Origin: Saprospiraceae bacterium | GTDB taxonomy: Bacteria; Bacteroidota; Bacteroidia; Chitinophagales; Saprospiraceae | Assembly (NCBI GenBank): GCA_027080725.1 | Contig: JALWRC010000103.1 | Location: forward strand, 1-35,538 | Direction: 5' to 3' | DNA length: 35,538 bases | Shown: positions 32,816 to 35,538 of the stretch, in pieces | Layout: each line of letters begins with the position of its first letter | Position numbering within the stretch: position 1 is the first letter of the stretch | Program-made: the position numbers and the translations under genes | Notes under the pieces: generated by a model | What the model saw: the letters and a program-made list of their open reading frames with translations, nothing else | Databases searched by the model: none | What the model was told of the DNA's origin: nothing

Positions 32816-33622
32816 TCATGTGTATTGCCAACCGGTAGCTGATGCAAATTTTTCGATGATTTCTATCATGTCCATTGGTAGTTTATTCATTGCGTAGTGA
32901 ATGAGTTTGGGGTCTATTTCTTTGTAGAATGCTTGGGCTATGCCTCCGGTTATGCAAGCGATCGTGTCACTATCTCCACCTAATGAAATGGCAATTCTAA
33001 TAGCACTTTCAAAGTCATCACTTTCTAAAAATGCAATGATGGATTCGGGGACAGTGCCTTGACAACTGACATCAAACCGGTAAGTCGGTCTTATGTCTAT
33101 TATTCTTCTTGAAAGATTGTAGTTGAAATTGTTTTCAATGTATTGTTTGATATGTTTTTTGCTTTCTCCCATGCGGGCGAGGAAGATTGCGGCGGCGGTT
33201 GCCTGCGCTCCTTTTATGCCCTCGGGATGGTTATGCGTTATGGCAGCGGAATATTTGGCCTCCTTTAGTGTGTCTTCAAGGGTCGCATAAAAAAAACCTA
33301 CCGGGCTCACTCGCATTGCAGCTCCATTGCCCCAGCTGTTATAAGGTCTTGGGCAAGAAATCGATATTGCCCATTGTTTAAATAAACCTCCATATCCGCG
33401 ATGGGGGTATTTATTGACCCAACGTCTTAGTATCTCAGCTTCATGTTGATAGCAAATGTTTGGATTCGCATCAAGCGTCAATAACAAATCCGCAATGGCA
33501 ATGGTCAGTACCGTATCATCGGTAAATCTAGCTTTTGGGGAGTACAGAGGGAAATCCGTTGTTTTGATATTATGCCGTTCGTATTGTGAACCGATAATGT
33601 CGCCAATTATTGCACCAATCAT
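32816..33622 (-). CDS. ADP-ribosylglycohydrolase family protein
   Basis: 268 residues. The dinuclear metal site is recognisable: FTDDTVLT with Thr34, Asp35 and Asp36 near the N-terminus, and GGDSDTIACITGGIAQAFY with Asp217, Asp219 and Thr220 near the C-terminus. NSWGNGAAMRVSPVGF and AITHNHPEGIKGAQATAAAI are also family signatures. Members (DraG, ARH types) remove ADP-ribose from proteins or nucleic acids, or cleave related ADP-ribosyl compounds. No ADP-ribosyltransferase lies beside it in the window. It is the last recognisable gene before the repeat/CRISPR island. The start at 33622 fits the family N-terminus MIGAIIGDIIGS. Confidence 0.93.
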   Translation of the reverse strand: MIGAIIGDIIGSQYERHNIKTTDFPLYSPKARFTDDTVLTIAIADLLLTLDANPNICYQHEAEILRRWVNKYPHRGYGGLFKQWAISISCPRPYNSWGNGAAMRVSPVGFFYATLEDTLKEAKYSAAITHNHPEGIKGAQATAAAIFLARMGESKKHIKQYIENNFNYNLSRRIIDIRPTYRFDVSCQGTVPESIIAFLESDDFESAIRIAISLGGDSDTIACITGGIAQAFYKEIDPKLIHYAMNKLPMDMIEIIEKFASATGWQYT

Positions 33623-33893
33623 TTGTGTGTGTGTTTTTCGTGTTTAACATTTCCTGCAGCATGTCAGGTAGGATTGCAAAGGTGGTAGTCCCGGTGCAAT
33701 CTATGTGCAGTGTGCGGTAAACTTTGTTGGGTATATCGTGATTTAGCTCCTATATTTTTCCCCTGTCTCGTGCTCTGTGGACGATACACAGGGTTCTGAC
33801 GGAGGAGAAGCGGCAGAGCATTGCGGCTTTACTTCGCCACAGCGCTTGCGTGATGAGCAATGGAGTAACGCAGAGAGATGGGGGGTGAAAGGA

Positions 33894-33911
33894 GACGCAA
33901 AGCATTGCGTC
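33894..33911. repeat. Hairpin GACGCA-AAGCAT-TGCGTC (unit 1)
   Basis: A 6-bp perfect stem with a 6-nt loop, repeated at 34047-34064. Related hairpins GCCGCA-GAGCAT-TGCGGC occur at 34128-34145 and 34209-34226, where the second base pair is changed on both sides (A-T to C-G). Confidence 0.75.
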
Positions 33912-34127
33912 TTTACAACATCCTTCTCTGTGAACGATACGCATGGTTCTGACGGAGGAGAAGCGGCAGAGCATTGCGGCTTTACTTCGCCGGAGCGCTT
34001 GCGTGATGAGCAATGGAGTAACGCAGAGAGAAGGGGGGTGAAAGGAGACGCAAAGCATTGCGTCTTTACAACATCCTTCTCCATTGTTGTGCTGTGGACG
34101 ATACACAGGGTTCTGACGGAGGAAGGA

Positions 34128-34145
34128 GCCGCAGAGCATTGCGGC
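34128..34145. repeat. Hairpin GCCGCA-GAGCAT-TGCGGC (unit 3)
   Basis: Same size and loop position as the unit 1 and 2 hairpins, with a paired substitution in the stem. An identical copy is at 34209-34226. Confidence 0.75.
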
Positions 34146-34233
34146 TTTACAACATCCTTCTCGATTGTTGCTCTGTGGACGATACACAGGGTTCTGACGG
34201 AGGAAGGAGCCGCAGAGCATTGCGGCTTTACTT

Positions 34234-34327
34234 CGCCACAGCACTTTGGCTATCGCACAAAGTGTGTGGACTCCGCATACTGCTCCTTGCTGCGCTGCGG
34301 GGCTGTTGCTCCGTTTCACTTCGGGCA
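34234..34327. repeat. Module E copy 1, 94 bp exact repeat with hairpin
   Basis: Exactly repeated at 35063-35156; its first ~47 bases recur again from 35475. It contains a hairpin at 34236-34269 in which CCAC pairs GTGG and CACTTTG pairs CAAAGTG, with a small internal loop and a 9-nt apical loop. Confidence 0.85.
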
Positions 34328-34390
34328 CAGTGCTCCGGGCAAGGAATAAATATGCGCAGCAAGCGAAGCTATTTTACCCTGAATCAAGGA

Positions 34391-34432
34391 ACTCGAACGG
34401 GAGTTATGCCTTAGCATAGTGACTGTTCGAGT
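34391..34432. ncRNA. Structured element D, copy 1 (candidate RNA hairpin)
   Basis: A 42-nt hairpin. The basal 8-bp stem is ACTCGAAC/GTTCGAGT, followed by a 3-nt left bulge (GGG), AGT/ACT, a 3-nt right bulge (GTG), then TATGC/GCATA closing a 4-nt loop (CTTA). The flanks ATCAAG before and AACACAGAG after are shared with copy 2. Whether it is transcribed is unknown, so 'ncRNA' is provisional. Confidence 0.55.
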
Positions 34433-34516
34433 AACACAGAGTCAGGGGAAAAGAGCGAGATTATGTGCATAGTTATGTCCTGCCCGTAGCACTAACCACC
34501 CCGTGGCTCAAACACC

Positions 34517-34675
34517 CTTGTTCACCTTCTAAACTGGACACATGGTTCTGACTCAACACAAAGGTCGGGGGATGATTCAACACTAGCATGTCTTAATCCT
34601 TCTAAGCTGGACGCACGGTTCTGACTGTTAGAAGATTTCCTGGCAGCAGCCAAGAAATCGTCTTAATCCTTCTAA
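34517..34675. CRISPR. Short CRISPR array 1, degraded at both ends
   Basis: One nearly intact 36-nt repeat (34590-34625, one mismatch to the array 2 repeat) lies between a degenerate repeat (34517-34552, first 8 nt altered) and a truncated one (34660-34675, only the first 16 nt). Spacers are 34553-34589 (37 nt) and 34626-34659 (34 nt). The second spacer is itself a hairpin. No cas genes are in the window. Confidence 0.8.
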
Positions 34676-34742
34676 TCGGTGCACTGCGCAAGGAGTAAAT
34701 GGAGGCAACTTAAAAGCATAGAACATTGCGGCTAAAAAAGTC

Positions 34743-34826
34743 TATTTTGCCGCTATATTTTGTCGATTTTTGTAGCAATAGCGGTGCTATTCCATAAAAA
34801 AATCGACTTCATCTATCGGCAAAATA
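34743..34826. ncRNA. 84-nt nested hairpin, candidate structured RNA or cruciform
   Basis: Three nested perfect stems. The outer is TATTTTGCCG/CGGCAAAATA (34743-34752, 34817-34826), the middle is TCGATTTTT/AAAAATCGA (34763-34771, 34798-34806), the inner is AATAGC/GCTATT (34777-34782, 34786-34791) with a 3-nt loop. The outer internal loop is symmetric, 10 nt on each side. A T-run (34831-34836) follows on the plus strand, as at the end of a terminated transcript. Transcription is not shown. Confidence 0.6.
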
Positions 34827-34902
34827 ATTCTTTTTTATCACACAAGCCTCCATGCTTATAAGTTGCGATCAGGAACGCCGGATTTTTTATCTGTATCAAG
34901 AC

Positions 34903-34944
34903 GCTGAAACAGGAGTTATGCCGTAGCATAATGACTGTTTTAGC
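34903..34944. ncRNA. Structured element D, copy 2 (candidate RNA hairpin)
   Basis: Same architecture as copy 1. The basal stem is GCTGAAAC/GTTTTAGC, with one G·U pair, then bulge AGG, AGT/ACT, bulge ATG, TATGC/GCATA and loop CGTA. Three basal pairs differ from copy 1 on both strands yet still pair. The shared flanks are ATCAAG before and AACGCAGAG after. Confidence 0.55.
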
Positions 34945-35007
34945 AACGCAGAGACAGGAAAAAAAGACAAGTTACTGGCTGCAGAGACTTCTTGAGCCGT
35001 GCACAAC

Positions 35008-35022
35008 ACGCATGGTTCTGAC
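35008..35022. repeat. Isolated CRISPR repeat 3' fragment
   Basis: ACGCATGGTTCTGAC, identical to the last 15 nt of the CRISPR repeat, stands alone here without the first 21 nt. It directly precedes the 84-bp exact repeat at 35026. Confidence 0.8.
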
Positions 35023-35025
35023 AAG

Positions 35026-35109
35026 GATAGAGGAGCACGCCATACCAAGCGTGTACATTTCCCGCCACAGCACTTTGGCTATCGCACAAAGTGTGTGGAC
35101 TCCGCATAC
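35026..35109. repeat. 84-bp exact repeat, copy 1 (leader-like)
   Basis: Identical to 35438-35521. In both places the 84 bp lies a few bases after GGTTCTGAC, the end of a CRISPR repeat or fragment. It includes the CACTTTG/CAAAGTG hairpin of module E (35065-35098). Confidence 0.9.
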
Positions 35110-35157
35110 TGCTCCTTGCTGCGCTGCGGGGCTGTTGCTCCGTTTCACTTCGGGCAT

Positions 35158-35174
35158 GAGCCACCCCGTGGCTC
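35158..35174. repeat. Hairpin GAGCCAC-CCC-GTGGCTC beside CRISPR array 2
   Basis: A perfect 7-bp stem with a 3-nt loop, just before the degenerate end repeat. The same context (CCACCCCGTGGCTCAAACAC) precedes array 1 at 34497-34516, with a shortened stem. Confidence 0.75.
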
Positions 35175-35181
35175 AAACACC

Positions 35182-35435
35182 CTCGTTCACCTTCTAAGCT
35201 GGACGCATGGTTCTGACACAACTAATAACAACCTCATCTAAATGCAAAAAAATGTCTTAATCCTTCTAAGCTGGACGCATGGTTCTGACCTGAAAAAGAT
35301 TTCCCCGAATACTACAAAATATATAGGGTCTTAATCCTTCTAAGCTGGACGCATGGTTCTGACATGAGATAGTCCACGAGCCCACACTCTTCTATGAGTG
35401 TCTTAATCCTTCTAAGCTGGACGCATGGTTCTGAC
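35182..35435 (-). CRISPR. CRISPR array 2: four 36-nt repeats, three spacers
   Basis: Repeats are at 35182-35217 (first 8 nt degenerate), 35254-35289, 35328-35363 and 35400-35435; the last three are identical. Each begins GTCTTAATCC, has TTCTAAGCTGGACGCAT in the middle and ends GGTTCTGAC. Spacers are 36, 38 and 36 nt. The degenerate repeat at the low-coordinate end, and a reverse-complement repeat ending GGATTAAGAC, favour transcription on the minus strand with the leader to the right (35436 onward). The cas type cannot be assigned without cas genes. Confidence 0.9.
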
Positions 35436-35437
35436 GA

Positions 35438-35521
35438 GATAGAGGAGCACGCCATACCAAGCGTGTACATTTCCCGCCACAGCACTTTGGCTATCGCACA
35501 AAGTGTGTGGACTCCGCATAC
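35438..35521. repeat. 84-bp exact repeat, copy 2 (candidate CRISPR leader)
   Basis: Identical to 35026-35109. It adjoins the intact end of array 2, the position expected for a leader if the array is read on the minus strand. The sequence diverges from copy 1 after GACTCCGCATAC. Confidence 0.8.
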
Positions 35522-35538
35522 CTGTCCCTGATACACAT

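What the first reader, a model, noticed from the sequence alone, without database searches (positions are those of the whole stretch)
34391..34944. Two copies of a 42-nt hairpin with paired stem changes (element D)
The copies at 34391-34432 and 34903-34944 share sequence in the apical part and flanks, but the basal 8-bp stem differs at three pairs: A-T versus G-C, C-G versus G·U, and G-C versus A-T. All still pair. Paired changes with conserved loops are the signature of selection on a folded structure, most simply an RNA. The element has conserved bulges (GGG/AGG and GTG/ATG), ATCAAG upstream and AACRCAGAG downstream. I know no family with this consensus. Two copies are a small sample.
Basis: partly seen in the sequence, partly recalled or inferred. 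Interest (0 to 1): 0.75.

Follow-up and report, generated by a model that had tools for sequence, protein, structure and literature searches.

The report
Mobile DNA hairpin with conserved fold
The two hairpins are the tips of a roughly 165-letter mobile DNA element, present in dozens of copies here and in many relatives, whose ends, in half of the elements tested, resemble those of known jumping genes, while its folded core has been preserved as the letters around it changed.

Summary
The core pattern occurs at 64 places in this genome. The window itself holds a paralogue of copy 1's flanks without the element. A covariance model of the core hits 160 of 398 genomes of the same family (Saprospiraceae by record titles), against 2 of 395 in a phylum sample. 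Rfam has no match. Outer arms differ between genera, often completely, yet pair within each element; for 7 of 14 elements tested, both arms match IS630 (DDE_3) transposon ends. So it is MITE-like, most likely moved in trans by IS630 transposases; no cognate IS was found for the window's own subfamily. The core covaries: of 12 column pairs at E<0.05 in my tree-based test, 10 are structure pairs and 2 their neighbours. Both internal loops swap A·G for C·A. Selection on a one-strand fold is well supported. Whether it acts as RNA or single-stranded DNA, and what it does, is unknown.

The parts
34328..34494 (+). Full-length element, copy 1, with one flanking base on each side (167 nt; begins CA, ends TA)
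   Evidence: nhmmer model 1-165 at 34329-34493; arms read
34329..34349 (+). Left terminal inverted repeat of copy 1 (AGTGCTCCGGGCAAGGAATAA)
   Evidence: pattern match, 2 mismatches to the consensus end
34472..34493 (+). Right terminal inverted repeat of copy 1 (ends GTAGCACT)
   Evidence: sequence and alignment
34362..34460 (+). Conserved folded core of copy 1 (two internal loops plus apical hairpin)
   Evidence: R1 106.5 bits on + strand against 31.8 bits on - strand
34391..34432 (+).
   Evidence: fold
34874..34972 (+). Conserved folded core of copy 2
   Evidence: R1 94.0 bits on + strand against 23.8 bits on - strand
34903..34944 (+).
   Evidence: fold
34875..35004 (+). Copy 2 as a partial element: model positions 35-164, left end not matched
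   Evidence: nhmmer
35063..35222 (+). Paralogue of the flanks of copy 1 without the element (empty site)
   Evidence: 34234-34327 = 35063-35156 at 100% and 34489-34557 ~ 35154-35222 at 90% (D6, D10); read
34701..34868 (.). Another long palindrome directly left of copy 2, where its left arm would be; possibly nested
   Evidence: (I1) and fold -55.9 kcal/mol; nesting not proven

Best explanation
Element D is a copy of a ~165-bp non-autonomous mobile element (a MITE in the broad sense). It is most likely moved in trans by IS630-family (Tc1/mariner-like, DDE_3) transposases that insert at TA. The outer arms serve as transposase-recognised ends; they are replaced over time so as to resemble one or another IS630 lineage, and are kept as inverted repeats. 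Inside the arms is a conserved core: internal loop AUCRAGGC/AACGMAGAG, a 10-bp variable stem, a GA/GA loop, a 7-bp stem and a mostly 4-nt loop. The core is under selection to fold on one strand (the window's + strand) and was not found inside the IS630 elements examined. Shown: copies, ends, a site without the element, arm/IS similarity for half of the elements tested, covariation, strand asymmetry. Inferred: TA duplication on insertion, and that IS630 transposase acts on it. Inferred and less certain: that the fold works as RNA, when copies are read through or transcribed, as a protein-bound hairpin that makes the element tolerated or helps it persist.
For: 64 core places against 0 in control. 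90 model hits in 80 own-genome stretches (79 fetched plus the window), 38 near full length. 28 of 43 end-to-end copies have TA on both sides. Four pairs of copies abut directly, and all four junctions read GCAC-TA-GTGC, one shared TA. Paralogous site without the element in the window. Both arms match IS630 ends for 7 of 14 elements, p <= 0.007 for each arm, including G349, where IS (DDE_3) and element share a genome. The left arm of an own-genome subfamily (C73) matches the end of a probable IS630 remnant in G189 at 28 of 34 positions, p 0.0005. Core not found inside IS630s. Arms within an element pair at -33.6 kcal/mol on average against -11.1 between elements; own partner ranks first for 11 of 12. 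160 of 398 family genomes against 2 of 395 in a phylum sample. Covariation: 18 of 33 pairs with double changes against 8.6 shuffled; 10 of 12 significant pairs lie in the structure, the other 2 adjacent. G-U 168 cells against A-C 25. Loop co-substitutions.
Against: No cognate IS630 was found for the window's own subfamily. The only DDE_3 hit in the genome (C53) has other ends by my reading, and a G349 IS630 protein finds only that gene, weakly. 7 of 14 elements match no IS end convincingly; in G085 the two arms match different IS; except for G349, the matching IS lies in another genome than the element. 15 of 43 copies lack TA on one or both sides, and neither copy 1's left flank nor its paralogous site has the TA, so target duplication is not directly shown. 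19 of 47 element-rich genomes have no DDE_3 hit; DDE_3 presence goes with the element, but so does Y1 (odds ratios 4.1 and 3.0), which suggests a general mobile-element load. The G189 remnant rests on a 29-aa match at E 0.004. An own-genome subfamily (C73, C39, C54 and others) carries ACGA instead of ACTG and loses two basal pairs. No transcript data. Copy orientation relative to genes shows no clear preference. The covariation test is my own simplified version, on a model-fitted alignment of sequences found by a structure model.
Confidence: 0.75

Rival explanations
1. Paired changes arise without selection: long imperfect palindromes are 'corrected' by template switching between their arms during replication, so both sides change together in an otherwise ordinary MITE.
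For: Elements are long quasi-palindromes. Outer arms change, often completely, but stay complementary. Some subfamilies tolerate broken pairs.
Against: Correction should erase mismatches. Instead GA/GA is kept in 43 of 51 rows and swapped as A·G to C·A in 7. Columns of the outer internal loop are more conserved (mean 0.88, 12 columns) than stem columns (0.72, 66 columns). G-U 168 against A-C 25 shows one strand is favoured.
Confidence: 0.15
2. The element is recognised as folded single-stranded DNA (in the manner of REP/RAYT or integron attC sites), not as duplex IS630 ends; the fold is the transposition substrate.
For: Strand-specific fold with conserved internal loops, and length 163-167 nt in the 14 elements measured whatever the arm sequence. 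Own genome has one Y1 transposase hit, 219 bp from a copy.
Against: Arms match IS630 ends for 7 of 14 elements, with TA flanks in 28 of 43 copies as expected for IS630. G072 has 10 R1 matches and no Y1 hit; 21 of 160 element genomes have no Y1 hit. The own-genome Y1 gene has a hairpin of its own beside it and looks like IS200 TnpA by my reading.
Confidence: 0.12
3. It is a host-owned structured RNA (regulator or terminator) that spread by duplication, not a mobile element.
For: Covarying fold; the 51 copies examined lie between genes.
Against: Site without the element, terminal inverted repeats, TA flanks, abutting copies, IS-like arms. Orientation to genes is not fixed: 10 same, 15 opposite, 17 convergent, 9 divergent of 51. 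Patchy presence: 160 of 398.
Confidence: 0.04

Closest known systems
RUP (repeat unit of pneumococcus, 107 bp; IS630-Spn1)
   Same: Short, intergenic, TIRs similar to an IS630 element, TA target, folds end to end (PMC2229807 and PMC3049150, passages seen).
   Different: Here the interior fold is conserved across a bacterial family with base-pair covariation, while the ends differ between genera. The passages seen describe RUP in S. pneumoniae, S. mitis and rarely other streptococci; neither paper holds the word 'compensatory'.
Correia/NEMIS elements of Neisseria (107 and 155 bp)
   Same: Similar size, TIRs with TA, stable stem-loop transcripts; RNase III processing reported (PMC2229807, PMC10969869, passages seen).
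   Different: Other host group; 24-bp TIR reported, against pairing along the whole element here. Sequences were not compared.
ERIC/IRU (127 bp) and Yersinia palindromic sequence/RU-2 (168 bp)
   Same: Intergenic palindromic repeats of like size (PMC2229807, passages seen).
   Different: The Yersinia element lacks terminal TA; no sequence relation was tested here.
REP sequences with RAYT (Y1) transposases
   Same: Repeated intergenic palindromes with mismatched stems (recalled).
   Different: REPs are 20-40 bp (start of abstract of PMC3733652). Here ~165 bp, half of the elements tested with IS630-like ends, and at least one copy-rich genome without a Y1 hit.

Membership tests
MITE (non-autonomous, IS-mobilised) | Short, no transposase, terminal inverted repeats | tested here: met
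   163-167 nt for the 14 elements measured (own-genome copies with a side hairpin reach 188 nt); TIRs; no ORF of 150 aa or more over the 51 copies examined with my own ORF caller
MITE (non-autonomous, IS-mobilised) | Target-site duplication | tested here: inconclusive
   TA on both sides in 28 of 43 copies; four abutting pairs share one TA. But copy 1's left flank reads CA and its paralogous site has no TA
MITE (non-autonomous, IS-mobilised) | Ends shared with an autonomous IS | tested here: inconclusive
   Met for 7 of 14 elements across the family and, with a probable IS630 remnant, for another own-genome subfamily; not met for the window's own subfamily
MITE derived from an IS by internal deletion | Interior is a remnant of the IS | tested here: not met
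   R1 searched over 21 loci with IS630 genes: its only two hits lie beside, not inside, the IS of L207
Any Rfam 15 family | Score at or above the gathering threshold | tested here: not met
   Window 33600-35538 down to E 5: six weak hits, none on the element cores and none near a gathering score; 0 matches in 12 and in 10 loci, most from relatives
REP/RAYT | Linked or co-occurring RAYT | tested here: not met
   The one Y1 hit in the genome looks like IS200 TnpA with a hairpin of its own, by my reading; 21 of 160 element genomes have no Y1 hit, G072 among them
Integron attC site | Integron integrase and cassette array | not tested
   Considered from memory only; no integrase search run
Functional noncoding RNA | Transcript | not testable with these tools
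   No RNA-seq available

The most novel reading that the evidence does not exclude
The conserved core is an active RNA carried by a selfish DNA element: a protein-binding or catalytic hairpin that has kept its fold, including non-Watson-Crick pairs, across a bacterial family while the element repeatedly changed its ends to parasitise different IS630 transposases.
Probability: 0.3. Interest if true: 0.88.

Novelty: new variant of a known kind. Interest (0 to 1): 0.62.

Why it matters
Bacterial MITEs are usually treated (recalled) as deletion relics of insertion sequences whose main conserved parts are their ends. Here the ends are exchangeable and the interior fold is what persists, with base-pair covariation across many genera and dozens of copies in this genome. 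If confirmed, it would be a natural case for asking whether a non-coding transposon can carry a selected RNA (or single-stranded DNA) function. It also supplies a covariance model for annotating a repeat family that may break assemblies: six contigs of this genome begin or end inside a copy.

Tried and rejected
Rejected: IS200/RAYT origin. The single Y1 hit (C17) lies near one copy, but has a hairpin of its own, and PF01797 is absent from 21 of 160 element genomes, copy-rich G072 among them. Rejected as mobiliser of the window's subfamily: the genome's one IS630 (C53), whose ends are unlike the element's by my reading, although it sits beside a partial copy. Rejected: an autonomous version with a transposase between the same ends. 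I looked for it among open frames, read by eye and without a profile search, at 18 own-genome loci and four G036/G349 loci.

Led nowhere: gene-context bias (10 same, 15 opposite, 17 convergent, 9 divergent of 51; 15 further copies dropped for lack of a neighbour). DDE_3 presence goes with element presence (76 of 160 against 43 of 238, odds ratio 4.1), but so does Y1 (139 of 160 against 164 of 238, odds ratio 3.0), so transposon load or genome size is a likely confounder. The nested-insertion idea for copy 2 (joined view) stayed undecided. A plain DNA search with one full copy finds only 4 of 60 relatives, the own genome included.

Dropped rows: reverse-strand matches of the same elements (6, 3) and near-identical rows (41 to 33; 64 to 51). 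For one search, 40 of the 69 distinct cores were used; alternative-arm, shifted, truncated and some similar copies were left out. For one search, 9 of the 20 IS630 loci were used plus one end of the own-genome IS. Of the other 11, four (L214-L217) showed no paired ends, two (L202, L207) carry the same ends as L201 and L206, and five (L203, L210, L212, L218, L219) had candidate ends that I did not use. The 14 elements include two of the same own-genome subfamily and related ones from G349 and G036; its p-values come from 300 shuffles and are not corrected for 28 arms. For one search, 12 elements were used.

Limits: the core pattern and the regular expression fix most of the apical stem, so A1 cannot show apical covariation fairly; A3 (found with R1) can in part. 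R1 E-values are rough. The sample includes the own genome and some genomes of the same family. Only 10 candidates per genome were scored, so copy numbers there are lower bounds.

Full report
WHAT IS THERE. Both hairpins exist as described and fold far better than shuffles. The + strand folds better than the - strand over the 93-nt stretches: -40.0 against -33.0 and -34.3 against -25.6 kcal/mol. The two stretches share a longer 81-nt unit (D9). The window is one whole contig (C103) of a 110-contig, 3.80-Mb genome. The genome is of the Saprospiraceae by inference: pattern matches in six MAG assemblies all carry that name, and one of them appears among the 'same family' handles (G316, same coordinates as L065).

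COPIES AND BOUNDARIES. A 23-nt core pattern with up to 3 mismatches has 64 places in the genome, the reversed control 0. The terminal-repeat pattern has 90 sites. Aligning copies with flanks gave sharp ends, CTAGTGCTCCGCGCAAGAAATAA ... TTATTTTCTGCGCGGAGCACTAG. A profile of full copies found 90 hits in 80 stretches (79 fetched plus the window), 38 nearly full length. Of 43 copies with both ends, 28 have TA on both sides. Four pairs abut directly, two of them with both members full length, and all four junctions share one TA. Copy 1 spans 34328-34494. Its flanks recur without it at 35063-35222 (100% on the left, 90% on the right), so the window holds its own empty site, although that site has no TA. 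Copy 2 lacks the outer left arm; a different ~167-nt palindrome lies there.

WHICH MACHINERY. Reading open frames by eye, I found no transposase gene between element ends at 18 own-genome loci or in four loci of G036/G349. Because the flanks are mostly TA, I examined IS630-family (PF13358, DDE_3) transposons in relatives. Several have ends beginning TAGTG... or TAAGTA..., as many elements do. With a pool of 10 IS (19 ends), both arms of 7 of 14 elements scored above nearly all of 300 shuffles (p <= 0.007 each). In G349, IS (1.35 kb, DDE_3 confirmed) and element lie in one genome, and the left/right asymmetry of the two ends also matches. In the others the matching IS is in another genome, and in G085 the two arms match different IS. 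The remaining 7 showed no convincing match on both arms; the window's own element is among them (p 0.06 and 0.13). A second own-genome subfamily matches, at 28 of 34 positions of its left arm, the end of a probable IS630 remnant in G189 (the remnant is identified by a 29-aa match at E 0.004). R1 found no core inside the IS630s of 21 loci, so the core is not a remnant of those IS. DDE_3 presence goes with the element (odds ratio 4.1), but Y1 does so too (3.0), and 19 of 47 element-rich genomes lack DDE_3 hits, G036 and G072 among them; in G036 only C-terminal stubs of such a gene were found, one at a contig edge.

THE FOLD. Forty distinct cores gave 33 pairs in two helices: 95.1% of cells paired, 18 pairs with double changes against 8.6 +/- 1.7 in shuffles and 4-7 when slid. 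The model R1 hits 160 of 398 genomes of the family (62 of 112 genera) at E <= 0.001, and 2 of 395 in a phylum sample, namely the own genome and one genome of another family in the same class. Elements from these genomes have different, often unrelated outer arms but the same architecture. In a tree-based null that I wrote (substitutions per column kept and placed on a FastTree tree, 200 simulations), 12 of 4560 column pairs in 51 rows had E < 0.05; 10 are pairs of the structure and 2 are their neighbours. With 33 rows and 60 simulations, 5 pairs were significant, all in the structure. G-U cells outnumber A-C cells 168 to 25, so the + strand is the one that folds. R1 scores the + strand of copy 1 at 106.5 bits and the - strand at 31.8.

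LOOPS. Columns of the outer internal loop are more conserved than stem columns (0.88 over 12 columns against 0.72 over 66). The inner loop is GA/GA in 43 of 51 rows; in 7 rows A44·G63 becomes C44·A63, always together. In the outer loop C82 occurs only with A27 (15 rows), while G27 pairs with A82 (25 rows); A·A (9) and T·A (2) make up the rest. The same exchange, A·G for C·A, thus appears in both loops. From memory, such exchanges fit sheared (trans Hoogsteen/sugar-edge) pairs of RNA; that geometry was not tested. The rows are related, so the Fisher values overstate independence; I estimate at least three origins for the inner-loop exchange.

ARMS. For 12 elements the left arm pairs with its own right arm at -33.6 kcal/mol on average, against -11.1 for other elements' right arms; the own partner ranks first for 11 of 12. 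Total length is 163-167 nt in the 14 elements measured; own-genome copies with a side hairpin are longer, up to 188 nt. Compensatory change thus runs from the ends to the apex.

AGAINST. One own-genome subfamily (C73, C39, C54, C67, C47, C16, a C11 copy) has ACGA for ACTG and loses two basal pairs, so pairing is not indispensable there. The 51 copies examined lie between genes with no clear orientation rule, which does not favour a fixed cis-regulatory RNA. There is no transcript evidence.

WHAT IT WORKS LIKE, AND MEMBERSHIP. It behaves like IS630-mobilised MITEs such as RUP, whose TIRs resemble IS630-Spn1 and which insert at TA (PMC2229807, PMC3049150; passages seen). It meets the size and TIR features of MITEs; target duplication and a shared autonomous IS are only partly shown; 'internal deletion derivative of its IS' was tested and not met. 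Rfam has no match. In the open-access library, six searches found no description (listings, with passages seen from three papers). Most subscription papers and preprints were not searchable, so it may be described elsewhere.

VERDICT. A real, widespread family of structured MITE-like elements, not found described in the library searched: new variant of a known kind. The selection on folding is well supported, IS630 mobilisation is likely, and the purpose of the fold is open.

Noticed in passing
window 34590-35435: CRISPR-like array with 36-nt repeat GTCTTAATCCTTCTAAGCTGGACGCATGGTTCTGAC (4 matches with at most 1 mismatch, plus partial ones); sequence related to it recurs many times on contig C88.
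   Followed up: partly
window 34660-34675 and 35008-35022: The two halves of one such repeat lie on either side of copy 2 and the palindrome beside it, as if the element had inserted into a CRISPR repeat; the middle 5 nt are missing (read).
   Followed up: no
window 34701-34868: A second long palindrome (-55.9 kcal/mol as RNA); R1 reported no hit there.
   Followed up: partly
L022 (C95), L025 (C7), L070 (C8), L077 (C47), L101 (C80): Another sequence, starting TAGTGCCCCAC and in C95 and C7 closing as a hairpin, is inserted in the same spot (after AAT of the AATCGAGG loop) in several copies; it may be its own family or a descendant subfamily.
   Followed up: partly
L090 (C15), L100 (C72), L105 (C74): A side hairpin with the palindrome GACGCAATGCATTGCGTC sits in the 3' arm of copies of about 184-188 nt.
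   Followed up: no
window 33768-34073: 153-nt unit in two tandem copies (95% identical) with CATTGCG-type units, near the element.
   Followed up: no
L153, L155 (G036): A second, divergent element family in G036 with ends TAGTGCCTCGGGAA also matches R1 (51.7 bits), so one genome can hold several arm types.
   Followed up: partly
L170 (G781): One homologue in another family of the same class, keeping AUCAAGGC/AACGCAG but with a different apical stem.
   Followed up: partly
G000 contigs C10, C33, C57, C71, C81, C93: Contigs begin or end inside a copy of the element, so the repeat probably breaks the assembly.
   Followed up: no
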